From NCBI RefSeq assembly GCF_030523955.1, contig NZ_JAUNHL010000018.1:1-51428 (forward strand): a DNA stretch of 51,428 nucleotides, in the 5' to 3' direction. How positions within the stretch are numbered: the first letter of the stretch is position 1; every line of letters starts with the position of its first letter. Position numbers and translations under genes: made by a program. This document shows, piece after piece, positions 13,063 through 50,431 of this stretch. Source of the DNA: Neisseria sp. GTDB lineage: Bacteria > Pseudomonadota > Gammaproteobacteria > Burkholderiales > Neisseriaceae. Below the pieces are notes generated by a model. The model had not been told where the DNA came from and searched no databases. It saw only the letters and a program-made list of their open reading frames with translations.

Positions 13063-13066
13063 TTTC

Positions 13067-13095: not shown

Positions 13096-13183
13096 CTTTA
13101 ATTAATTTGTCGTATTTCCGAACCCGTTATTTTAAAACAGAACGGCGGACGGGTAGTTTTCAAATCTTCAGTTTTACCGAGCT

Positions 13184-14017: not shown

Positions 14018-14067
14018 CCATCTCTCCTACGGCGTTCGTTACGGCCCGCCGGTATAGCGCTCTTTTT

Positions 14068-15438: not shown

Positions 15439-15477
15439 GTTAATTTCTGTTTTCTTTTCTATCTAAAATGCCGCTTA

Positions 15478-15555
15478 AGGTGGGCGTAAACCCACCGTTG
15501 TTACCCTTGCTCAAAATGGTGGGTTAACACCCGCCCTACCTGTTTCAGACGGCCT
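15478..15555. repeat. Intergenic inverted repeats and AG uptake sequence
   Basis: GGTGGGCGTAAACCCACC (15480-15497) is a hairpin, followed by GGTGGGTTAACACCCGCC and an AG-type uptake word (15544-15555) that overlaps the end of the M23 peptidase gene. This GTGGGT hairpin type is common between neisserial genes. Confidence 0.6.
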
Positions 15556-16066
15556 ATTTATCCTGATTGATTAACGGATAGGGATTCACCGCGCCGTGCA
15601 GGGTGTATATACCGTAATGCAAATGCGGTGGCGTATCTTTGGCGTTACCGCTGTCGCCAACATAACCGATTATCGTACCCACCTCCACCCATTGGTAAAC
15701 GCGGATGTCGGCATAGCTTTCCAAATGGGCGTAATAATGCCAAGTGCGGCCCGGACCTTGTATGCCGACGGTTCTGCCGCCCAAACTGTTTTCTCCAATA
15801 CGCAGAATCATGCCGGGTGTGGTACTGGTAACCGGTGTGCCGCGCGGAGCGAAAATATCCACACCCTCGTGTTTGCGGCCGCCGCTGCGCACCGCACCCC
15901 AAGTGTCGGTAAAGCGATGCCCCTCCACCGGGTTGGGCAGACTGTCCGCTGTCGGTGCCGACTTAGTTTGTAAGTAGACCAGTCGCACAAATGGCAGCCA
16001 ATACGCTTGCGTTCCCCACAACAAAATGCCGACAACAAGCAAAACCGGTAGTAACCGCCGACCCAT
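15554..16066 (-). CDS. M23 family metallopeptidase, membrane-anchored
   Basis: LytM-type zinc endopeptidase predicted to cut peptidoglycan cross-bridges, or to act as a regulatory LytM protein. The 170-residue protein has one N-terminal membrane anchor (about 5-27) and then the M23 core. Zinc ligands are His66 and Asp70 (HEGVD) and His150 (HLHYG), with His114 (YYAHLE) and His148 as catalytic histidines, so the active site looks intact. It lies between murE and murF on the same strand with a 30-base gap to murE; in some Neisseria this position is occupied by dca. A role in septal wall remodelling is inferred from the location. Confidence 0.9.
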
Positions 16067-16096
16067 ACCTTACTCCAAACAATACGCCCTATGCCG

Positions 16097-37188: not shown

Positions 37189-37235
37189 TGCCTACACGCA
37201 GCCGCTTTGGCAGAACACCGCCGGCTTTTTTACAC

Positions 37236-37266
37236 CCGTCATATTCGGGGTTGACCCGAGTATGAC
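37236..37266. repeat. TACTCGGG-type palindrome, diverged copy
   Basis: CGTCATATTCGGGG and CCCGAGTATGACG arms around TTGA; abuts the nested CREE that begins at 37269. Confidence 0.65.
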
Positions 37267-37268
37267 GC

Positions 37269-37460
37269 TATAGCGGATTAACTTAACTTTCGCGAAGGCT
37301 CCGCTGTGCCTTATAGCAGATTTAATTAATTTTCGATACAAGGCAGCAAGCCGCAGACAGTACAAGTAGTACGGCAAGGTGCAGCAACGCCGTAGCGAAA
37401 GTTAAGTTAATCTGCTATAGCTCAAAGAGAACGATTTTGTCAGCAGCTTCCGGCAACCTT
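37269..37460. repeat. CREE nested inside another CREE
   Basis: The outer element begins with TATAGCGGATTAACTTAAC at 37269 and runs to GTGCCTTA (37313). It is split by a complete 108-bp inner element (37312-37419, ends TATAGCAGATT and AATCTGCTATA). It resumes with GCTCAAAGAGAACGATT, the known continuation of the CREE core CCTTAGCTCAAAGAG. The TA at the junction is duplicated. The right TIR of the outer element is not recognisable. It occupies most of the 393-base gap before the thioesterase gene. Confidence 0.8.
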
Positions 37461-37517
37461 TTCTTTTGCAGAAAAACATGATAACAATATCAATCTTCTT
37501 TATAAAAGGAGCGGAAA

Positions 37518-38308
37518 ATGGATTTAAATCAGGCATTCGCCACACTCAAACACAGCAAGCAAATCACCGTAGGCGCCATATGGTTCCAAGGCCGCTCGCT
37601 GTTCGGCGGCGTAACCGCTGCGCTGATGTTTGCCAAACTGCAACACGTTCTCGCGCAAGCGCACCGTTTGCGCAGCATGACGGTCAATTTCGTCGCTCCG
37701 ATCGATGCCGCTTCGCCCGTAGAATTAGACGCCCGGATTCTGCGGCGGGGCAAATCGGTGGTACAAGGCGAAGTGCATTTATTGCAGAACGGCGAAACGG
37801 CGGCCGTTATGCTGGCCAGTTTCGGCGCAGCCCGCCCTTCGCAAGCCTTGCAGACGGATTTACCGCCGCCGCCGAAATGGCCGCCGCCCGGCACCTTGCT
37901 TACCAAAAAAGATTTAAACGGCTTGCCGCTGCCGTTTCTGCACTATCTGGACCTACGCTGGGCACAAGGCGCAGAAGCCTTTTCCGGCGCCCCAAACGCC
38001 TCGTTCGGCGCCTATACGCGCTTTCAAAACCAGCAAGGCGCATTCACCCTGGCGCATCTGATCGCCCTAGCCGACGGCTTCCCGCCCTCACCCTCCGTCC
38101 TGCTCAAACATATCGCCCCATGAGCAGCCTGACTTGGACGCTGGAGTTGCTGCACGAGCCCGAAAACATCGGCATGGAAGACTTTTGGCAATACCAAGTC
38201 GCCACCGATTACGCCGCAGAGGGCTACGGCCACAGCGAAGCGAGAATGTGGGACAAAAACGGGCGCTTAACCCTGATCAGCCGCCAAACGGTAACCCTAT
38301 TCGGCTAA
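37518..38308 (+). pseudogene. Acyl-CoA thioesterase (TesB-like), frameshifted near codon 201
   Basis: Double-hotdog thioesterase split by a one-base frameshift. The first frame (37518-38123, 201 residues) carries the N-terminal hotdog with IWFQGRSLFGGVTAALM (21-37) and MTVNFVAPIDA. It ends at HIAP followed by a stop. The second frame (ATG at 38120, stop at 38306-38308, 62 residues) carries the expected C-terminal strands SSLTWTLELL, FWQYQVATDY and SRQTVTLFG. The frames overlap as ATGA after a CCCC run. The combined length of about 263 residues is that of an intact protein. It could be a dead gene, a sequencing slip, or two coupled chains. An AAGGAGCGG ribosome site precedes the start. It sits upstream of the hydroxycinnamate genes on the same strand. 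Confidence 0.82.
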
Positions 38309-38405
38309 ACCAAACAGCCTTTCTCGTTTCATTATATTTTTTATAAAAAAATCATATATTTAAATAAAAATATCAGCTGATTATTCTCATTACCAGCAAA
38401 CCTGC

Positions 38406-38435
38406 TTGATATATCAATTTGGTTGATATTATACT
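38406..38435 (+). promoter_or_regulatory. Promoter with palindromic candidate operator of the hydroxycinnamate genes
   Basis: In an AT-rich 170-base gap, the perfect palindrome TTGATATATCAA (38406-38417) overlaps a -35 (TTGATA); the -10 TATACT follows at 38430-38435 after 18 bp. A second half-site TTGATAT lies at 38423-38429. MarR-family regulators of this pathway bind such AT-rich palindromes, and a marR gene lies in the cluster. Confidence 0.55.
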
Positions 38436-38478
38436 AATTCCCAAAGCAACCGCCGAATTGACACGAAGGAGAGAAAAC

Positions 38479-39306
38479 ATGTCCTATGAAAACCGCTGGC
38501 AAACCGTAAAAGTGGAAGTAAGCAAGCAAATCGCCTGGGTCTTCCTCAACCGCCCCGAAAAGCGCAACGCCATGAGCCCGACCTTAAACCGCGAAATGGC
38601 CGACGTATTGGAAACCTTGGAGCAGGATGCCGACGTCGGCGTGGTGGTGATTACCGGCGAGGGCAGCGCGTGGACGGCCGGCATGGATTTGAAGGAATAC
38701 TTCCGCGAAACCGACGGTCTGCCGGAAATCGCCCAAGAAAAAGCACGGCGCGAGGCATGCAAATGGCAGTGGCAGATGCTACGCTTTTATGCCAAACCCA
38801 CCATTGCCATGGTCAACGGCTGGTGCTTCGGCGGCGCTTTCTCACCGCTGGTGGCCTGCGATCTGGCGATTGCGGCCGATGAAGCGGTGTTCGGCTTGTC
38901 GGAAATCAACTGGGGCATTCCGCCGGGTAATCTGGTGAGCAAAGCAATGGCCGATACGGTCGGCCACCGCCAGTCGCTGTACTACATCATGACCGGCGAA
39001 ACCTTCAACGGCAAACAGGCCGCAGAAATGGGTTTGGTCAACAAGAGCGTACCCTTGGCGGATTTGCGCGCGGAAGTGGAAAAACTGTGCCTGACCCTGC
39101 TGGAGAAAAATCCGGTGGTGCTGCGCTATGCAAAAAACGGCTTCAAACGCTGCCGCGAGCTGACTTGGGATCAAAACGAAGATTATCTGTACGCCAAGCT
39201 TGATCAGGCATTGTTCCGCGATCCGGAAGGCGGCCGCGCGGAAGGCATGCGCCAATTTCTGGATGAAAAAAGCATCAAACCGGGCCTGCAAACCTATAAA
39301 CGCTAA
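38479..39306 (+). CDS. hcaA: p-Hydroxycinnamoyl-CoA hydratase/lyase (enoyl-CoA hydratase family)
   Basis: Crotonase-fold enzyme that hydrates feruloyl- or coumaroyl-CoA and cleaves it to vanillin or 4-hydroxybenzaldehyde plus acetyl-CoA. From ATG 38479 (AAGGAGAG ribosome site) it has 275 residues. It matches Pseudomonas HCHL/Ech closely over its whole length by eye: LNRPEKRNAMSPTLNREM (23-40), AWTAGMDLKEYFRE, the catalytic Glu142 in GLSEINWGIPPG and the substrate tyrosine Tyr238 in EDYLYAKLDQ. The close match makes this call specific rather than generic enoyl-CoA hydratase. Equivalent names are ech and couA. First intact gene of the hydroxycinnamate cluster. Confidence 0.93.
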   Translation: MSYENRWQTVKVEVSKQIAWVFLNRPEKRNAMSPTLNREMADVLETLEQDADVGVVVITGEGSAWTAGMDLKEYFRETDGLPEIAQEKARREACKWQWQMLRFYAKPTIAMVNGWCFGGAFSPLVACDLAIAADEAVFGLSEINWGIPPGNLVSKAMADTVGHRQSLYYIMTGETFNGKQAAEMGLVNKSVPLADLRAEVEKLCLTLLEKNPVVLRYAKNGFKRCRELTWDQNEDYLYAKLDQALFRDPEGGRAEGMRQFLDEKSIKPGLQTYKR

Positions 39307-39397
39307 GCAGAATGCTTTTGCAAACAGCCAGACCACTATGCCTGTCTGAAAACCGAAAAACGGAGCTTTGCCCGCTAAAAAATCGAGAGGAGAAAAA

Positions 39398-40846
39398 ATG
39401 AACCAAGTGCAATTGCTGATTGGCGGCCAGTCGCGACCGGCTGCCGACGGTACGGTATTCGAGCGTTTCGGCCCTTTGAGCGGCCATGCGGTCAGCCAGG
39501 CCGCCGCGGGTAAGGCGGCCGATGCGGTGGCGGCGGTGGAAGCGGCGGCGAAAGCTTTTCCCGTCTGGTCGGCGCTGCCGCCGGGCGAAAAGCGCAACCG
39601 CCTGCTCAAAGCGGCGGACTTACTGGCTTCGCGCGCAGAGGCATTCATCAATATCGGCATCGAAGAGATGGGATCGAGCGGCGCGTGGTACGGCTTTAAC
39701 GTGCATCTGGCGGCCAATATGCTGCGCGACGCCGCCGGCATGGTCACACAGATTCAAGGCAACGTGATTCCGAGCGACGTGCCCGGACGCATAGCAATGG
39801 CCGTGCGCGTGCCTTGCGGCGTGGTGGTCGGCATGGCGCCGTGGAATGCGCCGGTGATTTTGGCGACCCGTGCGCTGGCCATGCCGCTGGCTTGCGGCAA
39901 CACGGTGGTGCTCAAGGCTTCGGAAATCTGTCCGGCCACGCATGAGCTCTTGGTGAAAACCTTAAACGAAGCGGGTTTGGGCGAAGGCGTGGTGAATCTG
40001 GTTACCCACAGCGCCGAAGATGCCCCCGAAGTGGTAGCGGCGCTGATCGCCCATCCGGCGGTGAAGCGTGTGAATTTTACCGGTTCCACCCATGTCGGCA
40101 AAATCATCGCCAAACAATGTGCCGAACACCTGAAGCCGGTGGTATTGGAATTGGGCGGCAAAGCGCCGGTTATCGTGTGCGAAGACGCGGATTTGGACGA
40201 AGCGGCCAACGCGATTGCGTTTGGCGCGTTTTTCAATCAGGGGCAGATTTGCATGAGTACCGAGCGGGTGCTGGTGCACGAAAAAGCGGCCGATGCGCTG
40301 ATTGAGCGCTTGAAAGCCAAAATCGACGGCTTCGTTACCGGCGACCCGCGCGAACAGGTGCACATCGCCCATGTGGAAAGCCGCCGCGCTGCCGACCGCA
40401 TTCTGTCTATGGTGCGCGATGCGGAAGACAAAGGCGCGCGCGCCATCACCGAATACCGCGTGAACGGCACCGCCATCAGCCCGATTCTGCTCGACGGCAT
40501 TGCCCCGGGCATGCAGCTTTATACCGAAGAATCTTTCGGCCCGGTATGTACGCTGGAGCGGGTGAAAAGCGATGATGAAGCAGTAAGCAAAGCCAATGAT
40601 TCGGTATTCGGTTTATCCGCCGCCGTATTCAGCCGCGACATCGGCCGTGCCATGGCTTTGGCGCAAAGAATCGAAAGCGGCATCTGCCACATCAATTCGG
40701 CCACGGTTGACGACGAAGCGCCGATGCCGTTCGGCGGCGTAAAAGAAAGCGGTTACGGGCGTTTCGGCTCGCAGGCATCGATCCATGAGTTTACCGAATT
40801 ACGCTGGATAACCGTACGCAGTACGCCCAAGCATTATCCGATTTAA
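39398..40846 (+). CDS. vdh: Vanillin / hydroxybenzaldehyde dehydrogenase
   Basis: NAD(P)-dependent aldehyde dehydrogenase predicted to oxidise vanillin or 4-hydroxybenzaldehyde to the acid. The 482-residue protein has Asn150 (APWNAP), Lys173 (VLKASE), the general base Glu251 (LELGGKAP) and the nucleophile Cys285 (GQICMSTER), so it looks active. The start has an AGAGGAGAA ribosome site. It lies 91 bases after the hydratase/lyase, with an uptake word between them. The substrate is inferred from context and resemblance to Vdh/HcaB; generic aldehyde dehydrogenases share the motifs. Confidence 0.88.
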   Translation: MNQVQLLIGGQSRPAADGTVFERFGPLSGHAVSQAAAGKAADAVAAVEAAAKAFPVWSALPPGEKRNRLLKAADLLASRAEAFINIGIEEMGSSGAWYGFNVHLAANMLRDAAGMVTQIQGNVIPSDVPGRIAMAVRVPCGVVVGMAPWNAPVILATRALAMPLACGNTVVLKASEICPATHELLVKTLNEAGLGEGVVNLVTHSAEDAPEVVAALIAHPAVKRVNFTGSTHVGKIIAKQCAEHLKPVVLELGGKAPVIVCEDADLDEAANAIAFGAFFNQGQICMSTERVLVHEKAADALIERLKAKIDGFVTGDPREQVHIAHVESRRAADRILSMVRDAEDKGARAITEYRVNGTAISPILLDGIAPGMQLYTEESFGPVCTLERVKSDDEAVSKANDSVFGLSAAVFSRDIGRAMALAQRIESGICHINSATVDDEAPMPFGGVKESGYGRFGSQASIHEFTELRWITVRSTPKHYPI

Positions 40847-40949
40847 CGAGCCTTCTTTCATCAGATAGGCATTATTTGATTAAAACAAAAAACAAAACCC
40901 TCCATGCCCTGCCTATGCCTGTCTGAAAATGCTGCAAAGGAGAAACAGC

Positions 40950-42806
40950 ATGACTCAAACATCCTATCTTGGCTATCCCGTCCGCGACGTAAAGCTGGGC
41001 GGTCATGAAGTGACCGTGCACGAAGCAGACGGCGTTTACTACATCACCCCCGTCGAAGCCTTAAAGCCCTATCCCGAAGTATTGTCGCAGCGTTTGTACG
41101 AAAACGCCGAAAAGCACCCCGACCGCCTGTTTGTCGCCAGGCGCGGCGATAACGGCCAATGGCAAAGCTACACCTACGCGCAAACGCTGGCGGCGGCGCG
41201 CAACATCGCCCAAGCGCTGCTTGCCTACGATTTATCCGCCGAACGCCCGCTGATGATACTTTCGGAAAACTCGCTGGAAGCGTTTTTGCTGAATTTCGGC
41301 GCCATGCTGGCGGGCATACCTTACGCCTATGTCGCCCCGGCCTATTCGCTGGTGGCCGAAACGCCCGACAAATTGCGCCACGTTATCGAAACGCTCACGC
41401 CGGGCATGTTTTTTGCCGGCGACGGTAAAGGTTTTCTGAAACATCTGGCCGCCTGCGGGCAGGCAGAAGAGCCGATTGTGACCACCACCGGCGAAATCGA
41501 CGGCAAGCCCTGTCTGAATTTCAACGATTTATTAAACACCCCGGCCACCGACGCCATCGAGCAGCGGCATGCGCAAATCCGCCCCGACGACATCGCCAAA
41601 TTCATGTTCACCTCCGGCTCGACCGCCCTGCCCAAAGTGGTACCGACCACCCACAAAATGCTGTGCAGCAATCAGCAGATGCTGCGCCAAACCCTGGCGC
41701 AAATGGAAGAGGAGCCGCCGGTATTGGTCGACTGGATGAGCTGGCACCACACCTTCGGCGGCAGCCACAACATGGGCATCGTGCTCTATAACGCCGGCAG
41801 CTTCTATATCGACGACGGCCGCCCGACACCCGACCGCTTCCACGAAACCATCCGCAACCTGAAAGAAATTTCGCCCACCCTGTATTTGAACGTACCGGTT
41901 GCCTGGGCGGCGCTGGCCAACGCGCTGACCGAAGACGCCCAATTGCGCGAGACCTTTTTCAAACGGGTGAAACTGCTGTTCTTCGCCGGTGCGGCGCTGT
42001 CGCAGGATTTGTGGCAGAAACTCTCCGACATCAGCTACGCCCATTGCGGCGAGCGCATCCGCATCATGGCCGGGCTGGGCATGACCGAAACTTCCCCTTC
42101 CTGCACCTTCACCACCGGGCCGACCAATCTGGAAGCCGGATTCGTCGGCTTTCCCGCCCCCGGCTGCGAAGTGAAGCTGGTACCGGTAGACGGCAAGCTC
42201 GAGCTGCGGGTACGCGGCCCGCACGTGATGCCCGGCTATTGGCGGCACGACGACGGCCGCGCCAGTTTCGACGAAGAAGGGTTTTACTGCACCGGCGATG
42301 CGGTGCGCCTGCACAATCCCCAAAATATCGCCGACGGCCTGGTATACGACGGGCGCATCGCCGAAGACTTCAAACTGAACACCGGCACCTTCGTCAACGT
42401 CGGCGAATTGCGCAGCCGCATTCTGATTCAAGGCAATGAATTGATCGAAGATGTGGTGCTGGTGGGCGAGGGAAAATACGAAATCGGCGTATTGGCCTTC
42501 GCCAAGCCCACCGTTACCCGCCGCATCAGCGGCCTGTCTGAACAGGCGGATTGGCGCGAAGTGTTGCTGCATCCGGCGGTACAGGCTTGGTTCGGGCAAT
42601 TTATGGCGCGAATCAACCAAGGCTACAACGCCAGCTCGAAACGCATCGCGCGCCTGTACCTGATGGAGCGTGCACCCGACGCAGGACTGGGCGAAAAAAC
42701 CGATAAAGGCAACCTCAACCAGCGCCTGCTGCGCAACAACCGCCGGCAAGAAATCGCCGCCTTATACGGCGAAGAAGCGGATCCGCTGCGTTTTCTGGCA
42801 CCGTAA
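40950..42806 (+). CDS. fcs: Feruloyl-CoA synthetase
   Basis: Adenylate-forming ligase that activates ferulate, coumarate or caffeate with ATP and CoA. From ATG 40950 (AAAGGAGAAA ribosome site) it has 618 residues, the length of the Fcs branch rather than of shorter 4CL enzymes. Motifs: the ATP loop TSGSTALPK (near 221-229), GLGMTETSP near 376-384, and the C-terminal hinge DGRIAEDFKLNTGTFVNVGEL. It shows the conserved N-terminus GYPVRDVKLGG. It is third in the cluster, after the aldehyde dehydrogenase. Confidence 0.9.
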   Translation: MTQTSYLGYPVRDVKLGGHEVTVHEADGVYYITPVEALKPYPEVLSQRLYENAEKHPDRLFVARRGDNGQWQSYTYAQTLAAARNIAQALLAYDLSAERPLMILSENSLEAFLLNFGAMLAGIPYAYVAPAYSLVAETPDKLRHVIETLTPGMFFAGDGKGFLKHLAACGQAEEPIVTTTGEIDGKPCLNFNDLLNTPATDAIEQRHAQIRPDDIAKFMFTSGSTALPKVVPTTHKMLCSNQQMLRQTLAQMEEEPPVLVDWMSWHHTFGGSHNMGIVLYNAGSFYIDDGRPTPDRFHETIRNLKEISPTLYLNVPVAWAALANALTEDAQLRETFFKRVKLLFFAGAALSQDLWQKLSDISYAHCGERIRIMAGLGMTETSPSCTFTTGPTNLEAGFVGFPAPGCEVKLVPVDGKLELRVRGPHVMPGYWRHDDGRASFDEEGFYCTGDAVRLHNPQNIADGLVYDGRIAEDFKLNTGTFVNVGELRSRILIQGNELIEDVVLVGEGKYEIGVLAFAKPTVTRRISGLSEQADWREVLLHPAVQAWFGQFMARINQGYNASSKRIARLYLMERAPDAGLGEKTDKGNLNQRLLRNNRRQEIAALYGEEADPLRFLAP

Positions 42807-42887
42807 AAATATAAAAAAACGCGCTGCAATCCTTTTCAGACAGGCATTTACACCGATGGTACCTTCCCCGCCGGTTGGCAGCGCCGA

Positions 42888-42995
42888 TATAGCAGATTAA
42901 CTTAACTTTCGCTACGGCGTTGCTGCGCCTTTCCGTACTATTTGTACTGCCTGCGGCTTGCTGCCTTGTATCGAAAATTAATTAAATTTGCTATA
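42888..42995. repeat. Correia-type element (CREE) between fcs and the transporter
   Basis: 108 bp with ends TATAGCAGATTAACTTAAC and AATTTGCTATA and the core GGCGTTGCTGCGCC, then CCGTACTATTTGTACTG. It is very like the inner element at 37312-37419, in opposite orientation. It separates the enzyme genes from the transporter gene and ends 25 bases before its start. Confidence 0.85.
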
Positions 42996-43020
42996 ACAAA
43001 CGGAATCAAGGAGAAATATC

Positions 43021-44238
43021 ATGACTGCCGAGGGAAGAACCATACAAAACAGTGCCAAAATCACATTGGCGCTGTGTTTCCTGCTCGCGCTGATGGAAGG
43101 TTTCGACCTGCAATCCATGGGCGTGGCGGCTCCGATGATGCGCGAAGCCTTCCACCTCGAGCCCAACCAGCTGGGCATGGCCTTTTCCGCCGCCACGCTG
43201 GGCACCCTGCCCGGCGCACTGCTGGCCGGCAAAATGGCCGACCTGTATGGCCGCAAGCCGATTCTGATCGTCAACACCATCCTGTTCGGCCTGATGAGCG
43301 TGTTAACCGCCCATGCCGCTTCGTTTCCCTTATTGCTCGGCGCCCGCTTCCTGACCGGCCTGGGGCTGGGCGGCGCCTTGCCGATTTTAATTACGATGGC
43401 CACCGAAGCCGTCAGCCCGAAATGGCGCGGCACGGCGGTGAGCGTGATGTATTGCGGCGTACCGGCCGGCGGCATCCTCACCTCGGTGGTGGCGATTTCC
43501 ATGGCCAAACAATTCGGTTGGCAGTCGATTTTCTATGTCGGCGGTTTCGCCCCGCTGCTGCTGTTGCCGGTAATCTGGCTGTTTCTGCCGGAATCGAAGG
43601 CCTATCTGCAAAGCAAGCTGGAAGCCGAGCAGCGCAAATATTCCATCCCGCATATTCTGTTCGGCGAAGGCCGCCTGTTCGGCTCGCTTCAGTTGTGGGT
43701 CAGCTTTTTCTGCACGCTGATTGTTTTATATGTATTGCTCAACTGGCTGCCGACCCTGTTTGCCAACCAAAATTTCAGCCGCGAAGAAATCAATTACGTT
43801 CAGATAGGCTTTAACGTCGGCGGCGTATTGGGCACCCTGCTGCTGGGCTTGCTGCTGGATAAGCTGAACATCAAAGCAGTGGTCGTTATGATTTACGTCG
43901 GCATGCTGGCGGCGCTGTATGCCCTGTCCGAAGGATCATCCTTAAGCGCACTGGTGGCGGCCACCACTGCCTGCGGTATCTTTATTATCGGCGGCCAAGG
44001 CGCGCTTTACGCGCTGGCGGGCATGTTTTATCCTGCCGCCATCCGCGGCACCGGCGTCGGCACCGCCGTGGCCGTCGGCTGCGCCGGCTCTTTCGCCGGC
44101 CCGATTCTGGCCGGTTTGATTCTGGGCGCCGGCCAATCCAGCGGCGCCGTGATTACCGCCGCCATTCCGGTGATCGCCATCGCCTTTATCAGCGCATTTA
44201 CATTGGTGCTGCGCTTTAGCCGCACGAAAAGCCAATAA
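43021..44238 (+). CDS. hcaK: Aromatic acid:H+ symporter (MFS, AAHS family)
   Basis: Twelve-helix major facilitator importing an aromatic acid, predicted hydroxycinnamate. The 405-residue protein has the AAHS signature GFDLQSMGVAAP in helix 1 (25-36) with the essential Asp27, the MFS loop GKMADLYGRKPIL (near 71-83), and RFLTGLGLGGALP in helix 4. A CAAGGAGAAA ribosome site precedes the ATG. It is followed after 13 bases by the MarR gene. The name is by analogy with Acinetobacter hcaK. Confidence 0.85.
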   Translation: MTAEGRTIQNSAKITLALCFLLALMEGFDLQSMGVAAPMMREAFHLEPNQLGMAFSAATLGTLPGALLAGKMADLYGRKPILIVNTILFGLMSVLTAHAASFPLLLGARFLTGLGLGGALPILITMATEAVSPKWRGTAVSVMYCGVPAGGILTSVVAISMAKQFGWQSIFYVGGFAPLLLLPVIWLFLPESKAYLQSKLEAEQRKYSIPHILFGEGRLFGSLQLWVSFFCTLIVLYVLLNWLPTLFANQNFSREEINYVQIGFNVGGVLGTLLLGLLLDKLNIKAVVVMIYVGMLAALYALSEGSSLSALVAATTACGIFIIGGQGALYALAGMFYPAAIRGTGVGTAVAVGCAGSFAGPILAGLILGAGQSSGAVITAAIPVIAIAFISAFTLVLRFSRTKSQ

Positions 44239-44251
44239 CGAAAGGGAAAAT

Positions 44252-44701
44252 ATGGAGCACACGGTGCTTGCCAACAACGATCTGCCTACCGTCAGCTACA
44301 GCCTCGGGCGCTTGGACCGATTGGTCAGCCAGCACCTGAGCGAGGCGCTCAAGCCGCTGGGGGTCAGCCTGCCGCAGTTTACGATGCTCTCGCATCTGGC
44401 GCGGCGCGGCGCTACGGCCAACGCCTCGCTGGCCGCCCGTTCGTTTATTTCGCCGCAAGCCGCCAACCAGATTGTGAACACCATGATCCTGCACGGCTGG
44501 GTCAGCAAACAAAACGATCCCAACCACGGCAGAATGGTCTTGATTGATTTAACCGAAACCGGTTTGGCCGTTTACCAGCGCTGCATGGCCGAGGCCGAGG
44601 CTTTCGAACGGACGATGCTGGTCGGGCTGCTGCCGGAGAATGTCATGATGCTCCGCTCCACCTTGCAGCGCCTGCTGGATAACCTGAATCAGCGCGGATA
44701 A
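44252..44701 (+). CDS. hcaR: MarR-family transcriptional regulator
   Basis: Winged helix-turn-helix dimer predicted to repress the hydroxycinnamate genes and to be released by an acyl-CoA such as feruloyl-CoA. The 149-residue protein has the MarR DNA-binding region LPQFTMLSHLARRGATANASLAARSFISPQAANQIV (near 40-75) and the wing DPNHGRMVLIDLTETG (near 90-105). It is the second gene of the transporter unit and carries its own terminator. The name is by analogy with hcaR/ferR; the ligand is inference. Confidence 0.85.
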   Translation: MEHTVLANNDLPTVSYSLGRLDRLVSQHLSEALKPLGVSLPQFTMLSHLARRGATANASLAARSFISPQAANQIVNTMILHGWVSKQNDPNHGRMVLIDLTETGLAVYQRCMAEAEAFERTMLVGLLPENVMMLRSTLQRLLDNLNQRG

Positions 44702-44710
44702 AGTCAAAAC

Positions 44711-44755
44711 CATGCCTGTCTGAAACCCCGCTCCCACCGTTTTCAGACAGGCATG
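44711..44755 (+). terminator. Inverted uptake-sequence terminator after marR
   Basis: TGCCTGTCTGAA (44713-44724) pairs with TTCAGACAGGCA (44742-44753), extended by CAT/ATG, 12 bases past the stop. Confidence 0.78.
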
Positions 44756-44767
44756 ATTCATCACAAC

Positions 44768-44873
44768 TATAGTGGTTTAAATTAAAAATAGGACAAGGCG
44801 ACGAGCCGCAGACAGTACAGATAGTACGGCAAGGCAAGGCAACGCTGTACCATTTTGAATTTAAGCCACTATA
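44768..44873. repeat. Correia-type element (CREE) upstream of the acyl-CoA dehydrogenase
   Basis: 106 bp with ends TATAGTGGTTTAAATT and AATTTAAGCCACTATA and the core GACAAGGCGACGAGCCGCAGACAGTAC. This is the canonical short CREE. It ends 26 bases before the start of the next gene and could supply its promoter. Confidence 0.87.
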
Positions 44874-44899
44874 TAACCAGAACAACAAGGAGAAAACTT

Positions 44900-47341
44900 A
44901 TGTGGGCAATCATCGCCGCCTTGGCCGGCCTCTTATTACTGGCTTTTTTCGGCGCCGCCTGGCCGTTCTGGCTGGCCTTAGCCGCTTTATTAACGCTTGC
45001 GGGAATTTTCCCTTGGTGGCTGGGCTTATTGTGGGCCGCGCTGTGCCTGCTGTTTGCCGTCGATTCCCTGCGCCTCAAATTCCTGAGCCAGCCGGCGTTC
45101 AGGCTGTTTAAAAACATTCTGCCGCCGCTCTCCGCCACCGAGCAGGCCGCCATCGATGCCGGTACGGTTTGGTGGGACGCCGAGATTTTCAACGGACGGC
45201 CGGATTGGCAGAAACTGTCGCAATACCGCGACCCAGAGCTCACGCCCGAAGAGCAATCGTTTCTGGACAACGAAACCGAAACCCTCTGCCAGATGCTCAA
45301 CGACTGGCGCTTTAGCCAACACGATAAAGACCTGCCGCCCGAAGTGTGGCAATACGTTAAAGACAAAGGCTTTATCGCGATGATTATCGAAAAATCATAC
45401 GGCGGGCTGGCATTTTCGCATTACGCCCATGCCAAAGTCGCCACCAAAATCGCCAGCCGCAGCCCGGCCGCAGCCTACATGATCATGCTGCCCAATTCGC
45501 TGGGACCGGCCGAACTCATCCAACATTACGGCACCGCCGAACAAAAAGATTACTACCTGCCGCGCCTGGCCAAAGGCATAGACATGCCCTGTTTTGCGCT
45601 CACCAGCCCTTGGGCGGGTTCCGACGCCGGCGCCATTCCGGATACCGGCATCGTGTGTTACGGCAGCTATACCGATCCGCGCGACGGCAGTTTTCACGAA
45701 AACGTATTGGGCATACGCGTCAGTTTTGAAAAGCGCTGGATCACTATGGCGCCGATCGCCACCGTTATCGGCTTGGCGTTCAAACTGCGCGACCCCGAAG
45801 GGCTGCTCGGCGGTGAGACCGACATCGGCATCACCTGCGCCCTCTTACCGACCGCCATGGAAGGGCTGCACCACCGCCGCCGGCATTATCCGAACGGCAC
45901 GCCGTTTTGGAACGGCCCGGTGTGGGGCAAAGATATTTTCTTTCCGCTCGAATGGATTATCGGCGGGCGCGACTATGCCGGCCAGGGCTGGCGGATGCTG
46001 ATGGAATGCCTGTCGATCGGCCGCTGCATCTCTCTGCCCTCGCAATCGGTGGGCAACGCCAAACACGCCGCCTGGACCACCTCCGCCTGGGCGGGCATCC
46101 GCCAGCAGTTCGGCCTGCCCATCGGCAAATTCGAAGGCGTGGCCGACGCACTGGCCCGCATCGGCGGCCATACCTACCAAATGGAAGCCACGCAGGATTT
46201 GGCCTTAACCGGCTTGGATCTGGGTGAAAACCCTTCGGTGATCTCCGCCATGGTGAAATTCAACAATACCGAGCGGCTGCGCAAAGTCATCAACGATGCG
46301 ATGGATATCCACGGCGGGCGCGCCGTGGTAACCGGGCCGCGCAACTATCTGGCGGCCATGTACAACGCCATCCCCATCGGCATCACGGTGGAAGGTGCCA
46401 ACATCTTAACCCGCAGCCTGATGATTTTCGGACAAGGTGCTTTCCGCTGCCACCATCACGTCTTGTCGGAAATCCGCGCACTGGAAGCCGATGACATAGC
46501 GGCGTTCGACCGCGCCTTTTGCAGCCACCTGCGCCAAAGCGCCGGCAATGCCGCCCGCAGCTTCGTCTTCGGCATCACCAACGGCGGCGGCCAAGCCCCC
46601 CGCGGCAAACTGGCTTTTGCCTATAAAAAGCTCAACCGTTTAAGCGCCGCTTTCGCCTTCGCCGCCGACGTCGCCATGCTCAGCCTGGGCGGCGACTTGA
46701 AACGGCGCGAAAGCCTCTCCGGCCGGTTGGCCGATGCCTTTTCCAACCTCTATATCGCCACGGCCTGTCTGAAACGCTTCGAGCGCGAAAGCAGCCAAAG
46801 TGCCGATTTGCCGTTGGCCGAATATGCGGTGCGCATGGCGTTGCATGAAACCGAAACCTCACTTTCCGGCCTGATTGCCAACCTGCCCAACCGCTGGGCG
46901 GCCGCCCTCTTGCGGCTGATCGTGTTCCCGCTCGGCAAACGCGAAGCTGCACCGAGCGACAAACTGGCGCACCAAGTGGCCGCCGACATGCAGCGGCACG
47001 ATGAAACACTCGAGCGCCTCACCCGCTTCCACTTCAAACCACAAGCCGAAGCCGACGACTTATACGAGCCGCTGGCCGTTTTAAAACCCGCGCTGGAAGC
47101 CGCGCGGCAAACCGGCAAGCTGGAGCAACTGTTGCGCAAAGCCGAAGCCAAAGGGCAGCTGACGGCAGAAACCCCCGCCGCCCGCATCAGCGAAGCCGTT
47201 GAGATGAACCTGATCAGCGAAGACGAAGCCGCGCAACTGCGCCAAGCCCGCCGCCTCATCAAAATCGCGATTACGGTAGACGACTTCGACATGGATTTGA
47301 ACGAACCGAATCCGCAGGTATTTGAAACCCGGGTGTTTTAA
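44900..47341 (+). CDS. fadE: FadE-type acyl-CoA dehydrogenase
   Basis: Membrane-associated flavoprotein that oxidises acyl-CoA to enoyl-CoA. From ATG 44900 (AAGGAGAAAA ribosome site) it has 813 residues, the length of E. coli FadE and twice that of ordinary dehydrogenases. It has two or three N-terminal membrane segments (about 1-65), the dehydrogenase core (about 90-520: FIAMIIEKSYGGLAFS, ALTSPWAGSDAG, DIHGGRAVVTGPRNY), and the FadE-specific C-terminal DUF1974 domain. In this setting it might act on saturated (dihydro-) hydroxycinnamoyl-CoA, as HcaD does, or on ordinary fatty acids. It lies after the regulator with its own terminator. Confidence 0.9.
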   Translation: MWAIIAALAGLLLLAFFGAAWPFWLALAALLTLAGIFPWWLGLLWAALCLLFAVDSLRLKFLSQPAFRLFKNILPPLSATEQAAIDAGTVWWDAEIFNGRPDWQKLSQYRDPELTPEEQSFLDNETETLCQMLNDWRFSQHDKDLPPEVWQYVKDKGFIAMIIEKSYGGLAFSHYAHAKVATKIASRSPAAAYMIMLPNSLGPAELIQHYGTAEQKDYYLPRLAKGIDMPCFALTSPWAGSDAGAIPDTGIVCYGSYTDPRDGSFHENVLGIRVSFEKRWITMAPIATVIGLAFKLRDPEGLLGGETDIGITCALLPTAMEGLHHRRRHYPNGTPFWNGPVWGKDIFFPLEWIIGGRDYAGQGWRMLMECLSIGRCISLPSQSVGNAKHAAWTTSAWAGIRQQFGLPIGKFEGVADALARIGGHTYQMEATQDLALTGLDLGENPSVISAMVKFNNTERLRKVINDAMDIHGGRAVVTGPRNYLAAMYNAIPIGITVEGANILTRSLMIFGQGAFRCHHHVLSEIRALEADDIAAFDRAFCSHLRQSAGNAARSFVFGITNGGGQAPRGKLAFAYKKLNRLSAAFAFAADVAMLSLGGDLKRRESLSGRLADAFSNLYIATACLKRFERESSQSADLPLAEYAVRMALHETETSLSGLIANLPNRWAAALLRLIVFPLGKREAAPSDKLAHQVAADMQRHDETLERLTRFHFKPQAEADDLYEPLAVLKPALEAARQTGKLEQLLRKAEAKGQLTAETPAARISEAVEMNLISEDEAAQLRQARRLIKIAITVDDFDMDLNEPNPQVFETRVF

Positions 47342-47350
47342 AGCGCATTC

Positions 47351-47394
47351 AATGCCTGTCTGAAAACCGCCCATCTGTTTTTCAGACAGGCATT
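47351..47394 (+). terminator. Inverted uptake-sequence terminator after fadE
   Basis: TGCCTGTCTGAA (47353-47364) pairs with TTCAGACAGGCA (47381-47392), loop 16 nt, outer AAT/ATT pairs, 12 bases past the stop. Confidence 0.78.
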
Positions 47395-47431
47395 CTTCTA
47401 AATTAAGCAAATATTGATTGTGAAAGAACAA

Positions 47432-47611: not shown

Positions 47612-50431
47612 ATGTCCCAAACCCTGCTCCTCGTTGACGGCTCTTCCTATCTCTACCGCGCTTTTCACGCCATGGCGCCCTTAACCGCGCCCGACGGCAC
47701 GCCCACCGGTGCGCTTTACGGCGTGCTCAATATGCTGCGCCGCCTGCGCGCCGATTATGTGCACGACTATTGCGCGGTGGTGTTTGACGCCAAAGGCAAA
47801 AACTTCCGCCACCAAATGTTTCCCGACTACAAAGCCACCCGCCCGCCGATGCCCGACGACTTGCGCCCGCAGGCGGAAATGCTGCCGGAAATGGTGCGGC
47901 TGATGGGCTGGCCGGTGTTGGTGGTGCCCGACGTGGAAGCGGACGACGTGATCGGCACGCTGGCCAAACAGGGCGAAGCGGCGGGCTGGAACGTGGTGGT
48001 GTCCACCGGCGACAAAGACATGGCGCAACTGGTGAGCGAGCACGTTACGCTGGTGAACACCATGAGCAACGAAAAGCTCGATATCGACGGCGTAAAAGCC
48101 AAGTTCGGCGTGCGCCCCGACCAAATCATCGACTACCTCACGCTGATGGGCGACAAAGTGGACAACGTACCGGGCGTGGAAAAATGCGGCCCGAAAACCG
48201 CAGTGAAATGGCTGGAACAATACGGCACCTTGCAGGGTGTGATCGAACACGCGGGCGAAATCAAAGGCAAGGTAGGCGAAAACCTGCAAGCCGCGCTGCC
48301 TCAACTGCCCTTGTCTTACCAACTGGTGACCATTAAAACCGATGTCGATTTGCACGCTGAACTTTCAGACGGCCTCGAAAGCCTGCGCCGCAGCACGCCG
48401 AAATGGTCGCAGCTGGCGGTGGAATTCAAGCGCCTGAATTTCCGCACCTGGCTGAAAGAAGCCGAAGAACGCATGCATGAAGGCAACGGCGATTTGTTCG
48501 GCGCCGCGCACATTGGCGAACAGGCAGCATTGGCCGAACAAAGCCTGTCTGCGACCGCAGGAAGTCCCTTTGGGAACAATGTTTCAGACGGCCTGCCGCA
48601 AACCGCCCCCGCTCCCGCCGCGCTGAATTACCAAGCGGTTACCACCGAAGCGCAGTTCGCCGCGCTGCTGGAGAGATTATCTCAAGCCGAAGCCGTCGGC
48701 ATCGACACCGAAACCACCTCGCTCAACCCGATGGAAGCGCGGCTGGTGGGCATCAGCATCGCCTTTGCCGCGGGCGATGCCGTGTATATCCCGCTCGGCC
48801 ACACCCCCACCGCCGCGCCCGAACAGCTTGATTTAAACGAAGTATTAGGCCGTCTGAAACCGCATTTGGAAAATGCCTGTCTGAAAAAAATCGGCCAAAA
48901 CCTCAAATACGACCAACACATTTTCGCCAATTACGATATTGCCTTAAACGGCATTGCCGGCGACGCCATGCTCGCCTCGTATATTCTCGAAAGCCACTTG
49001 GGGCACGGCCTCGACGAATTAGCCGAACGCTGGCTCGCTCTGCCCACCATCACCTACGAATCCCTGTGCGGCAAAGGCGCCAAGCAAATCAGTTTTGCCG
49101 ACGTGGCGCTGGAGCAGGCCACCGAATACGCCGCGCAAGACGCCGATTTCGCCCTGCGCATCGAAAGCTGGCTTAAAGCGCGCATGGACGCCAAACAGCT
49201 GGAAATGTATCAAAACATGGAGCTGCCCGTGGCCCAAGTGCTGTTTGAAATGGAGCGCACCGGTGTATTAATCGACAAAAACGAACTCGCCCGCCAAAGC
49301 CACGAATTGGGCAGCGAACTGTTGCAGCTTGAGCAGCAGGCCTACCAAATCGCCGGCCAGCCGTTTAACCTCAACTCGCCCAAACAATTGCAGGAAATCC
49401 TGTTCGACAAAATGGGCATCCCCACCAAAGGGCTGAAAAAAACCGCTTCCGGCGGCATTTCCACCAACGAAGCCGTGCTCGAACAGCTCGCGCCAGACTA
49501 CCCGCTGCCCAACATCATCCTGCAAAACCGCGGCCTGGCCAAACTCAAATCCACCTACACCGACAAACTGCCCGAGATGATCAACCCGCAAACCGGCCGC
49601 GTGCACACCACCTACGCCCAAGCCGTCGCCATCACCGGCCGTCTTGCCAGCAACAACCCCAACCTGCAAAACATCCCCATCCGCACCGCCGAAGGCCGCC
49701 GCGTGCGCCGCGCCTTCACCGCCCCCGCCGGCAGCGTGATCGTATCCGCCGACTATTCGCAAATCGAACTGCGCATTATGGCGCACCTCTCCGGCGACAA
49801 AACCCTGCTCGCCGCCTTCCAAAACGGCGAAGACGTACACCGCCGCACCGCCGCCGAAGTGTTTGGCGTCGCCCCCGAAAGCGTCAGCAGCGAACAGCGC
49901 CGCTACGCCAAAACCATCAACTTCGGCCTGATCTACGGCATGGGGCAATATGGCCTCGCCAAATCGTTGGGCATCGACAACCTATCCGCCAAAAACTTTA
50001 TCGACCGCTACTTCTCCCGCTACCCCGGCGTGGCCGACTATATGCAGCGCACCAAAGAACAGGCCGCCGCGCAAGGTTATGTCGAAACCCTGTTCGGCCG
50101 CCGCCTCTACCTGCCCGACATCCGCGCCGCCAACGCCAACCAACGCGCCGGCGCCGAGCGCGCCGCCATCAACGCCCCCATGCAGGGCACCGCCTCCGAC
50201 CTGATCAAACGCGCCATGATAGACGTGCGCAACTGGCTCGTTTCAGACGGCCTGCAAAGCAAACTGATTATGCAGGTGCACGACGAATTGGTGTTGGAAG
50301 TAGTTGAATCGGAACTGGAATTGGTGAAACAGAAACTGCCTGAGATTATGGCAGGCGTGGCCGGTGGACAATTAAACGTGCCGCTGGTGGCCGAAGTGGG
50401 CGTGGGGGAGAATTGGGAAGAGGCGCATTGA
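47612..50431 (+). CDS. polA: DNA polymerase I
   Basis: Repair and Okazaki-fragment polymerase with all three activities predicted. From ATG 47612 it has 939 residues; the open frame extends upstream to 47468, but that part lies in repeat and uptake DNA. The 5'-3' exonuclease domain (1-290) has LLVDGSSYLYRAFHA and DVEADDVIGTLA. The 3'-5' exonuclease domain (near 345-535) keeps DTET (364-367) and AAQDADFAL, so proofreading looks intact. The polymerase domain has motif A (SADYSQIELR, near 712) and motif C (MQVHDELVLE, near 887-896). The interdomain linker (near 310-345) contains two partial or full uptake words. Confidence 0.97.
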   Translation: MSQTLLLVDGSSYLYRAFHAMAPLTAPDGTPTGALYGVLNMLRRLRADYVHDYCAVVFDAKGKNFRHQMFPDYKATRPPMPDDLRPQAEMLPEMVRLMGWPVLVVPDVEADDVIGTLAKQGEAAGWNVVVSTGDKDMAQLVSEHVTLVNTMSNEKLDIDGVKAKFGVRPDQIIDYLTLMGDKVDNVPGVEKCGPKTAVKWLEQYGTLQGVIEHAGEIKGKVGENLQAALPQLPLSYQLVTIKTDVDLHAELSDGLESLRRSTPKWSQLAVEFKRLNFRTWLKEAEERMHEGNGDLFGAAHIGEQAALAEQSLSATAGSPFGNNVSDGLPQTAPAPAALNYQAVTTEAQFAALLERLSQAEAVGIDTETTSLNPMEARLVGISIAFAAGDAVYIPLGHTPTAAPEQLDLNEVLGRLKPHLENACLKKIGQNLKYDQHIFANYDIALNGIAGDAMLASYILESHLGHGLDELAERWLALPTITYESLCGKGAKQISFADVALEQATEYAAQDADFALRIESWLKARMDAKQLEMYQNMELPVAQVLFEMERTGVLIDKNELARQSHELGSELLQLEQQAYQIAGQPFNLNSPKQLQEILFDKMGIPTKGLKKTASGGISTNEAVLEQLAPDYPLPNIILQNRGLAKLKSTYTDKLPEMINPQTGRVHTTYAQAVAITGRLASNNPNLQNIPIRTAEGRRVRRAFTAPAGSVIVSADYSQIELRIMAHLSGDKTLLAAFQNGEDVHRRTAAEVFGVAPESVSSEQRRYAKTINFGLIYGMGQYGLAKSLGIDNLSAKNFIDRYFSRYPGVADYMQRTKEQAAAQGYVETLFGRRLYLPDIRAANANQRAGAERAAINAPMQGTASDLIKRAMIDVRNWLVSDGLQSKLIMQVHDELVLEVVESELELVKQKLPEIMAGVAGGQLNVPLVAEVGVGENWEEAH
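48847..48885 (+). repeat. Uptake sequences of both dialects inside polA
   Basis: AGGCCGTCTGAA (48847-48858) and TGCCTGTCTGAA (48874-48885) lie 27 bases apart on the same strand, in frame within the 3'-5' exonuclease domain (encoding GRLK and ACLKK). Confidence 0.92.

What the first reader, a model, noticed from the sequence alone, without database searches (positions are those of the whole stretch)
37518..47341. A hydroxycinnamate (ferulate/coumarate) degradation cluster in a Neisseria-type genome
Seen: hydratase/lyase, aldehyde dehydrogenase, feruloyl-CoA synthetase, AAHS transporter, MarR regulator and a FadE-type dehydrogenase, all on the plus strand, plus a broken thioesterase. Known: the same set of functions forms the hca genes of Acinetobacter and the ech-vdh-fcs genes of Pseudomonas. 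Inferred: the organism takes up plant-derived phenolic acids and trims them to vanillate or 4-hydroxybenzoate, gaining acetyl-CoA. I do not know this pathway from meningococcus or gonococcus, so it suggests a diet-exposed or environmental lifestyle.
Basis: partly seen in the sequence, partly recalled or inferred. Interest (0 to 1): 0.85.

Follow-up and report, generated by a model that had tools for sequence, protein, structure and literature searches.

The report
Plant-phenolic degradation genes in Neisseria
A Neisseria-type bacterium carries intact-looking genes, most like those of Psychrobacter, to take up plant phenolic acids and cut off their side chain, and a second gene cluster in its genome that could break the ring down to ordinary cell metabolites.

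Summary
The cluster is real. Six intact genes (38476-47341) encode a hydroxycinnamoyl-CoA hydratase/lyase, aromatic aldehyde dehydrogenase, CoA ligase, MFS carrier, HcaR-like MarR repressor and a FadE-type dehydrogenase; a frameshifted thioesterase precedes them. It is an hca/ech-vdh-fcs-type cluster: trees place ALDH, ligase and repressor beside Psychrobacter, and a perfect palindrome overlaps the lyase promoter, with looser counterparts before the lyase in all seven clusters scanned.

First, the genome also holds pobA inside a protocatechuate 4,5-cleavage cluster (ligJ-K-pobA-I-A-B-C), so p-coumarate and caffeate can be followed on paper to pyruvate and oxaloacetate; no VanA was found, so ferulate probably stops at vanillate. 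All four lyase-bearing genomes of 46 in the genus have pobA (broken in one), three of them a strong LigB. Second, a FadE-type enzyme stands where Acinetobacter loci have a short dehydrogenase (HcaD). In these 46 genomes FadE was found only near a FadB-like gene (4) or in this cluster (4), and no FadB was found in this genome; I infer a role on saturated phenylpropionyl-CoAs.

Verdict: new variant of a known kind. Core function likely (0.85), FadE role plausible. No activity was measured.

The parts
37312..37419 (.). Correia-like (CREE-like) repeat upstream of the thioesterase, about 108 bp
   Evidence: core motif exact at 37350-37379; ends read by me; 104-108 bp length class per passages of PMC2649163
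37488..37504 (.). operator-like palindrome (1 mismatch to TATCAA-N5-TTGATA), 13 bp before the thioesterase start
   Evidence: counterparts in L100 (15934) and L102 (11536)
37518..38308 (+). TesB/4HBT_3-type acyl-CoA thioesterase, frameshifted in its C-terminal part (two pieces in different frames)
   Evidence: two relatives have both domains in one frame
38411..38429 (.). perfect palindrome ATATCAA-N5-TTGATAT between the -35-like (38406) and -10-like (ends 38435) hexamers before the lyase: candidate HcaR-type operator
   Evidence: (4 sites with up to 2 mismatches in the window, 0.13 expected; this one has none)
38476..39306 (+). p-hydroxycinnamoyl-CoA hydratase/lyase (HcaA/Ech/HCHL type)
   Evidence: NF006588 494 bits over cut-off 276; HCHL 6l3o, 2j5i nearly full length
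39398..40846 (+). aromatic aldehyde dehydrogenase (HcaB/Vdh type)
   Evidence: grouped with Psychrobacter ALDH, 100/100
40947..42806 (+). hydroxycinnamate-CoA ligase (HcaC/Fcs type)
   Evidence: tree
42888..42995 (.). Correia-like repeat between ligase and transporter
43021..44238 (+). MFS aromatic-acid carrier (HcaK/MhpT type)
   Evidence: NF008586 512 bits over cut-off 410; 55-58% to the MFS beside the lyase in Acinetobacter loci
44252..44701 (+). MarR-family repressor, HcaR-like
   Evidence: best solved relative HcaR 3k0l 109.7 bits; tree
44708..44758 (.). inverted pair of wadDUS sites after marR, terminator-like
44768..44873 (.). Correia-like repeat between marR and the FadE-type gene
44897..47341 (+). 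FadE-type acyl-CoA dehydrogenase (814 aa), cluster-specific clade
   Evidence: NF007000 1023 bits, PF09317, tree
47351..47394 (.). inverted pair of wadDUS sites after the FadE-type gene, terminator-like end of the cluster

Best explanation
The cluster is an hca-type (CoA-dependent, non-beta-oxidative) pathway. The MFS carrier imports hydroxycinnamates; the ligase makes the CoA thioester; the hydratase/lyase hydrates it and releases acetyl-CoA and a hydroxybenzaldehyde; the aldehyde dehydrogenase oxidises that to 4-hydroxybenzoate (from p-coumarate), protocatechuate (from caffeate) or vanillate (from ferulate). The MarR protein represses the lyase promoter by sitting between -35 and -10 and is released by a pathway thioester or aromatic acid. 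A second cluster in the genome takes 4-hydroxybenzoate to protocatechuate (PobA) and by 4,5-cleavage to pyruvate and oxaloacetate. The FadE-type enzyme most likely oxidises saturated phenylpropionyl-CoAs to the cinnamoyl-CoAs that the lyase can use. The thioesterase would hydrolyse excess thioester, and is broken in this assembly. Shown by sequence: gene families, gene order, conserved palindromes, co-occurrence, purifying selection. Inferred: all activities, repression, FadE's substrate, the thioesterase's role. The confidence given is for the hydroxycinnamate pathway; for the FadE role alone about 0.5.
For: Lyase over the curated cut-off and alignable over residues 3-276 with solved HCHL enzymes; Ser123, Glu143 and Tyr239, which I recall as catalytic, are present. 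ALDH nearest to salicylaldehyde and vanillin dehydrogenases. MarR nearest to HcaR. Of the 80 loci kept, 76 have an ALDH relative within 600 bp after the lyase, 77 a ligase relative within 4.5 kb, 74 both. ALDH, ligase and MarR form groups with Psychrobacter (100/100, 100/100, 100/98). A palindrome with up to 2 mismatches before the lyase in 7 of 7 clusters scanned (window, L100, L101, L102, L014, L016, L017). PobA and LigA, B, C, I, J, K present, in the same order in G043, G001 and G032 and in two contig pieces in G010. Lyase in 4 of 46 genomes, PobA in 6 of 46 (5 over cut-off, one broken), overlap 4 of 4 (hypergeometric 9e-5, not corrected for kinship). FadE in 8 of 46: 4 with a FadB-like frame nearby and the 4 with the lyase. 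One ECH_1 match in the own genome, the lyase itself. Low pN/pS in all 33 gene pairs tested (0.06-0.31; 12, 21).
Against: No biochemical or expression data. The ligase, the AAHS subfamily, the ALDH and the MarR protein miss the NCBIfam cut-offs (the carrier passes as MhpT). FadE keeps 161 of 170 positions that are invariant in 14 other FadE proteins, and its solved relatives are general acyl-CoA dehydrogenases (best ACAD9, 84 bits), so nothing in its sequence shows a new substrate. A terminator-like DUS pair and a Correia-like element lie between marR and FadE. The thioesterase is broken here, and G042 shows decay: no ALDH or ligase hit, broken PobA and only a weak LigB-family match (62.6 bits). 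No VanA; LigM-type demethylases were not searched.
Confidence: 0.85

Rival explanations
1. The FadE-type gene is an unrelated neighbour that serves fatty-acid metabolism, and only the five genes up to marR are the hydroxycinnamate operon.
For: It is a full FadE by family (NF007000 over cut-off) and keeps 161 of 170 invariant FadE positions. A terminator-like DUS pair and a Correia-like repeat separate it from marR. In the 80 outside lyase loci no FadE-type protein was seen: the strongest FadE hit is 68 bits, with 13 loci having any hit.
Against: No FadB was found in the own genome: one ECH_1 match, the lyase, and 3HCDH_N matches that are short (best 24 bits over 49 of 180 positions, just over the 22-bit cut-off). 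FadE is found in 8 of 46 genomes: four with a FadB-like frame nearby and exactly the four with the lyase, where it follows marR each time. The cluster FadEs form their own clade on a long stem. Other lyase loci also have an acyl-CoA dehydrogenase at hand, of other families.
Confidence: 0.35
2. The cluster mainly detoxifies phenolic acids or yields acetyl-CoA, with hydroxybenzoates excreted, rather than feeding full ring degradation.
For: The two clusters lie on different contigs, C40 and C99, and ferulate would end at vanillate. G042 keeps part of this cluster without a strong LigB.
Against: PobA and a complete 4,5-cleavage set are present in the own genome with low pN/pS, and all four lyase genomes have PobA, one of them broken.
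Confidence: 0.15
3. The contig is contamination from a gammaproteobacterium or a soil bacterium.
For: The assembly has 3.8% estimated contamination; the nearest outside relatives of the core genes are Psychrobacter.
Against: The contig carries dcw genes, murJ, lptD and 37 wadDUS sites, 7 of them in 37200-47400; three other genomes of the genus, two of them (G043, G042) single-contig assemblies, have genes of the same cluster in stretches with AG-DUS; GC3 of the cluster genes overlaps that of other genes of the window.
Confidence: 0.02

Closest known systems
hca cluster of Acinetobacter (hcaABCDEFG, hcaK, hcaR of ADP1; gene names partly recalled)
   Same: Lyase, ALDH, ligase, MFS carrier and a MarR relative together in Acinetobacter loci; HcaR is the repressor's nearest solved relative. 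HcaR as repressor answering to CoA thioesters: passages of PMC5487221 and PMC10458429; the former adds that the solved HcaR binds free acids.
   Different: In the Acinetobacter loci marR and MFS lie on the strand opposite to the lyase, and a weak FadE-like hit follows the ligase in the two looked at (L022, L024), taken by me as the short HcaD; here all genes are on one strand, a FadE-type enzyme is present, a thioesterase is added, and no porin or esterase gene lies in the cluster. The review describes protocatechuate entering the beta-ketoadipate route; here it is 4,5-cleavage.
Psychrobacter lyase-ALDH-ligase-marR clusters (L014, L015, L016)
   Same: Same order and strand; 84/81/63/63-65% identity; closest by tree; similar promoter palindromes in L014, L016, L017.
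   Different: No MFS hit between ligase and marR and no FadE-type hit in L014, L016, L017. Instead a 600-aa acyl-CoA dehydrogenase of another family lies about 3 kb after marR in 4 of 4 Psychrobacter loci.
ech-vdh-fcs genes of Pseudomonas
   Same: Lyase 79-81%; the ALDH and ligase beside it mostly 56-61% and 49-54%.
   Different: Less similar than Psychrobacter; no marR hit of 80 bits or more in the Pseudomonas rows.
lig/pmd protocatechuate 4,5-cleavage pathway (Sphingobium SYK-6, Comamonas; strain names recalled)
   Same: LigA, B, C, I, J, K homologues in one cluster.
   Different: pobA and a PcaK-like carrier lie inside the cluster; the host is a Neisseria-type genome.
G063, another genus of the same family
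   Same: An hca-type locus.
   Different: It groups with Acinetobacter by tree and order, with 77/61/49% identity for lyase, ALDH and ligase and a 379-aa dehydrogenase, which suggests a separate acquisition.

Membership tests
hca / ech-vdh-fcs hydroxycinnamate cluster | hydroxycinnamoyl-CoA hydratase/lyase | tested here: met
   NF006588 494 bits against 276; residues 3-276 match HCHL 6l3o and 2j5i
hca / ech-vdh-fcs hydroxycinnamate cluster | vanillin/hydroxybenzaldehyde dehydrogenase | tested here: met
   nearest solved: salicylaldehyde and vanillin dehydrogenases; no NCBIfam cut-off reached. Substrate not testable
hca / ech-vdh-fcs hydroxycinnamate cluster | feruloyl/coumaroyl-CoA ligase | tested here: inconclusive
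   647 bits, below the 777 cut-off of PRK12582; solved relatives weak; 49-63% to ligases in the same place elsewhere
hca / ech-vdh-fcs hydroxycinnamate cluster | aromatic-acid MFS carrier | tested here: met
   MhpT equivalog over cut-off; AAHS subfamily TIGR00895 below cut-off
hca / ech-vdh-fcs hydroxycinnamate cluster | HcaR-type MarR repressor | tested here: met
   HcaR is by far the nearest solved relative; no NCBIfam cut-off reached
hca / ech-vdh-fcs hydroxycinnamate cluster | operator of that repressor at the lyase promoter | tested here: inconclusive
   palindrome at the promoter, recurring in relatives; binding not testable and the published operator not held
hca cluster of Acinetobacter type | short (about 380 aa) acyl-CoA dehydrogenase HcaD | tested here: not met
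   814 aa FadE-type instead; HcaD1 395 aa and HcaD2 383 aa in Cupriavidus per passages of PMC3560178
hca cluster of Acinetobacter type | porin and chlorogenate esterase genes in the cluster (recalled) | tested here: not met
   no such gene among those of 37518-47341. The rest of the genome was not searched for them
FadE acyl-CoA dehydrogenase (beta-oxidation) | FadE-type domain set with ACDH_C | tested here: met
   the E. coli-type exception model NF038187 is below cut-off (945 against 1300)
FadE acyl-CoA dehydrogenase (beta-oxidation) | FadB partner in the genome | tested here: not met
   single ECH_1 match is the lyase; 3HCDH_N matches short, best 24 bits
protocatechuate 4,5-cleavage pathway | LigAB, LigC, LigI, LigJ, LigK | tested here: met
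vanillate branch | VanA oxygenase | tested here: not met
   PF19112: 0 matches in the own genome; LigM-type demethylase not tested
beta-ketoadipate pathway | PcaGH protocatechuate 3,4-dioxygenase | tested here: not met
   PF00775: one partial match (39.7 bits, over Pfam's 27.3, positions 2-97 of 182) in a protein that reaches no dioxygenase cut-off in NCBIfam

The most novel reading that the evidence does not exclude
In a few Neisseria-type lineages a FadE related to the beta-oxidation enzyme of other members of the genus was re-used as the dehydrogenase of an imported hca operon. With no FadB, the enzyme's job is now to desaturate reduced plant phenolics (phloretic, dihydrocaffeic, dihydroferulic acids made by other microbes) and hand them to the lyase, then to the ring-cleavage route. 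A thioesterase under the same repressor resets the thioester inducer. Acinetobacter, Psychrobacter and Neisseria would then each have put an acyl-CoA dehydrogenase of a different family to this use.
Probability: 0.4. Interest if true: 0.65.

Novelty: new variant of a known kind. Interest (0 to 1): 0.5.

Why it matters
Neisseria is mostly known for lactate- and glucose-users of animal mucosa (recalled). A complete paper route from p-coumarate to central metabolites, split over two clusters that occur together in some members of the genus, points to a plant-phenolic niche and makes it testable by growth assays. It also gives a case of a beta-oxidation dehydrogenase apparently recruited into an aromatic pathway, and of an operon shared with gammaproteobacteria that has taken on neisserial uptake sequences and Correia-like elements.

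Tried and rejected
Contamination was considered and rejected (uptake sequences, dcw/lptD on the same contig, genes of the same cluster in two single-contig genomes). A link to ubiquinone (4-hydroxybenzoate replacing chorismate lyase) was tested: UbiC is present in the own genome; G043 and G042 have the lyase and no UbiC match but G010 has both, and 16 of 46 genomes have no match, so no pattern was claimed. A shared chromosomal site was tested and rejected: flanks differ (window: ABC permease, and polA by my reading of its translation; G043: M1 peptidase and Nramp- and PHO4-type carriers; G010: TrkH), and window polA and permease gave no hit in L100-L102. A FadE beside outside lyase loci was sought and not found. 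The direction of transfer between Psychrobacter and Neisseria cannot be told from the trees (in the ligase tree the Neisseria rows are not resolved as one group). Tree cautions: the MarR tree has long branches meeting, and the FadE tree joins cluster and FadB-linked FadEs with only 90/94 support. Promoter-like sites as a whole are not significant (8 found, 4.8 expected).

Papers: PMC4933237, PMC194952 and PMC152463 (HcaR structure, hca regulation, hca genes; titles from reference lists) are not held, so the published HcaR operator could not be compared. Searches for Neisseria with hydroxycinnamate+ferulate, protocatechuate, p-coumarate, feruloyl-CoA and 4-hydroxybenzoate 3-monooxygenase listed no paper whose title or shown abstract start is on this; I saw listings only (all rows except for protocatechuate, 20 of 41), apart from passages of PMC5487221 and PMC2265553. 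A search on acyl-CoA dehydrogenase in hca pathways gave two papers, one of which I read in passages.

Full report
WHAT IS THERE. The window is a whole contig (G000:C40, 51,428 bases) of a 2.81 Mb, 107-contig assembly, 99.98% complete and 3.8% contaminated by the tool's estimate. In 37518-47341 the plus strand holds a compact cluster: thioesterase (two frames), lyase, aldehyde dehydrogenase, CoA ligase, MFS carrier, MarR, FadE-type dehydrogenase. The lyase reaches 494 bits against a curated cut-off of 276 for p-hydroxycinnamoyl-CoA hydratase/lyase; the next family scores 138. It aligns over residues 3-276 with solved hydroxycinnamoyl-CoA hydratase-lyases (6l3o, 2j5i and others). Ser123, Glu143 and Tyr239, which I recall as active-site residues of the Pseudomonas enzyme, are present; no call gave me the residue roles, and one paper search for them returned nothing. 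The MarR protein's best solved relative is Acinetobacter HcaR at 109.7 bits, the next 45.9. Several parts miss curated NCBIfam cut-offs: ligase (647 against 777), AAHS carrier subfamily (314 against 418.55; the carrier passes MhpT, 512 against 410), ALDH (best 338 against 638), MarR (best 43 against 220). The ligase's solved relatives are weak (best 57.3 bits, salicylate-AMP ligase).

THE BROKEN GENE. The thioesterase's N-terminal domain and part of its C-terminal domain lie in one frame (37518-38123), the rest in another up to 38308. In G043 (L100) and G010 (L101) both domains are in one frame. Whether the break here is real or a sequencing error cannot be told.

WHO ELSE HAS IT. In the genus (46 genomes) the lyase passes its cut-off in 4: own, G043, G010 and, as a partial frame, G042. 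G043 has thioesterase, lyase, ALDH, ligase, MFS, MarR and FadE in one run. In G010 the run is split over contigs C65 and C66, and its thioesterase is on the other strand. In G042 the lyase is cut, ALDH and ligase gave no hit, and FadE is in three pieces; this assembly is rated 85% complete, so part of this may be assembly error. In the family (83 genomes) one more passes, G063 of another genus, whose locus is Acinetobacter-like with marR and MFS divergent and a 379-aa dehydrogenase. Flanking genes differ between the Neisseria-type genomes.

ORIGIN. In 74 of the 80 both an ALDH and a ligase relative follow the lyase (thresholds 600 bp and 4.5 kb). L014, L015 and L016 have lyase-ALDH-ligase-marR in the same order at 84/81/63/63-65%; L017 has lyase, ligase and marR, and its only ALDH hit is a distant one elsewhere. 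Trees on a subset (30 ALDH, 32 ligase, 22 MarR rows, picked by score thresholds from 32 loci plus the window) put Neisseria and Psychrobacter together with 100/100, 100/100 and 100/98 support, while G063 goes with Acinetobacter. This suggests at least two acquisitions in the family. The direction of the Psychrobacter exchange is open.

SETTLED IN. The stretch 37200-47400 carries 7 wadDUS sites and no AG-DUS; L100, L101 and L102 carry AG-DUS; the Psychrobacter locus L016 and the G063 locus have none of the six motifs counted. wadDUS is the dialect described for N. wadsworthii (passages of PMC3630211; the 12 letters were recalled and agree with the description there). GC3 of the cluster genes is 0.67-0.81 against 0.46-0.78 for five other genes of the window. 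Three Correia-like elements of 106-108 bp (ends read by me) sit before the thioesterase, between ligase and MFS, and between marR and FadE; these are all 3 matches of the core at up to 3 mismatches in the window, with 0.00 expected, and one more appears at window 92 with 5 mismatches. G043 has a 5-mismatch match in its own ligase-MFS gap. Such elements can make promoters (abstract and passages of PMC2649163). pN/pS is 0.07-0.31 for 12 gene pairs against G043 and G010.

REGULATION. A perfect palindrome ATATCAA-N5-TTGATAT lies at 38411-38429, between the -35-like TTGATA and the -10-like TATACT of the best promoter-like match of the region. A related site (up to 2 mismatches in 12 positions) lies before the lyase in 7 of 7 clusters scanned, against 0.15-0.5 sites expected per stretch; L015 was not in that scan, and the G010 marR-FadE piece has none. 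A further site precedes the thioesterase in the three clusters where that gene lies upstream on the same strand (window, L100, L102). Exact matches to the full 19-base pattern occurred only in two loci cut from the own genome, of 113 loci then held. HcaR is described as a repressor answering to hydroxycinnamoyl-CoA (passages of PMC5487221 and PMC10458429). That this MarR binds these sites is inference.

DOWNSTREAM. PobA scores 663 bits against 538.7 at C99:58698-59864. Around it (L108) lie a PcaK-like carrier (below the PcaK cut-off), LigJ (4-oxalomesaconate hydratase 2gwg, 640 bits), LigK (TIGR02798, 403 against 304.5), LigI (4d8l, 342 bits), LigA (PF07746; 1b4u, 147 bits), LigB (508 against 317), LigC (PmdC 9azo, 566 bits) and an aldo/keto reductase. 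The same order occurs in G043, G001 and G032, and in two contig pieces in G010. PobA passes its cut-off in 5 of 46 and is broken in G042; all 4 lyase genomes are among these 6 (P 9e-5 without regard to kinship). LigB-family matches above 250 bits occur in 5 of 46 (G043, G010, G032, own, G001) and not in G042, so 3 of the 4 lyase genomes have it. VanA_C: no match in the own genome. PF00775: one partial match, to a protein whose N-terminus looks secreted to me. Hence p-coumarate and caffeate can be followed to pyruvate and oxaloacetate on paper; ferulate probably stops at vanillate. LigM-type demethylases, thiolases and esterases were not searched.

THE FadE-TYPE GENE. PF09317 is found in 8 of 46 genomes: G003, G017, G034, G038, which have a 792-801 aa FadB-like frame nearby, and the four lyase genomes. 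The own genome has one ECH_1 match, the lyase, and only short 3HCDH_N matches (best 24 bits over 49 of 180 positions, just over the 22-bit cut-off); G030 and G033 have 3HCDH_N matches in shorter frames. In a 17-row tree the three cluster FadEs used (own, G043, G010) form a clade (100/100) on a stem of 0.63, next to the FadB-linked ones of the genus (90/94) and apart from 10 outside FadEs. They keep 161 of 170 positions invariant in the other 14, so they should still be acyl-CoA dehydrogenases; solved relatives are general (best ACAD9, 84 bits; caffeyl-CoA reductase 68.8 bits). In other lyase loci a dehydrogenase of another family is at hand: G063 has a 379-aa one after the ligase, two Acinetobacter loci have a weak FadE-like hit there, and 4 of 4 Psychrobacter loci have a 600-aa one about 3 kb after marR. 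In Cupriavidus HcaD proteins are 383 and 395 aa; those authors place HcaD outside this route and suggest a beta-oxidative one (passages of PMC3560178). I infer that FadE-type works on saturated phenylpropionyl-CoAs. Against it: a terminator-like hairpin and a Correia-like element separate it from marR, no FadE-type was seen in the 80 outside loci (best hit 68 bits), and no substrate evidence exists.

VERDICT. It is a new variant of the hca kind.

Noticed in passing
window 4500-17172, 30222, 48364-50242: 17 AG-DUS sites lie mainly in the dcw region and the polA-like gene, beside 37 wadDUS in the window, while the hca region has only wadDUS: a mosaic of uptake dialects that may mark imported housekeeping stretches.
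   Followed up: partly
window 37312-37419, 42888-42995, 44768-44873: Three Correia-like elements, all in gaps of this one cluster and none (at up to 3 mismatches) in the rest of the window.
   Followed up: partly
L102 (G042:C1:2205000-2224900): Decayed version of the cluster: lyase cut, no ALDH or ligase hit, FadE in three pieces; PobA of that genome also broken.
   Followed up: partly
L162 (G063:C12:88000-107900): Acinetobacter-like hca locus in another genus of the family.
   Followed up: yes
L016 13240-15042; L014 8488, L015 8600, L017 16758: A 600-aa acyl-CoA dehydrogenase of another family lies about 3 kb after marR in 4 of 4 Psychrobacter loci.
   Followed up: partly
L103 787-1629 (G000:C97): Protein with an intradiol-dioxygenase-like core and a signal-like N-terminus, below the NCBIfam dioxygenase cut-offs.
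   Followed up: no
L108 13223-14173 (LigC), L166, L167, L163: LigC is 97% identical between own, G010 and G001 but 92% to G043, with lower pS (0.32-0.36) than its neighbours: possible exchange of that gene.
   Followed up: no
window 13184-14017: Arylamine N-acetyltransferase-family gene lying inside the dcw cell-division cluster.
   Followed up: no
genus-wide, PF04345: Chorismate lyase is found in 30 of 46 genomes only; how the other 16 make 4-hydroxybenzoate for ubiquinone is unclear, or the weak model misses them.
   Followed up: no
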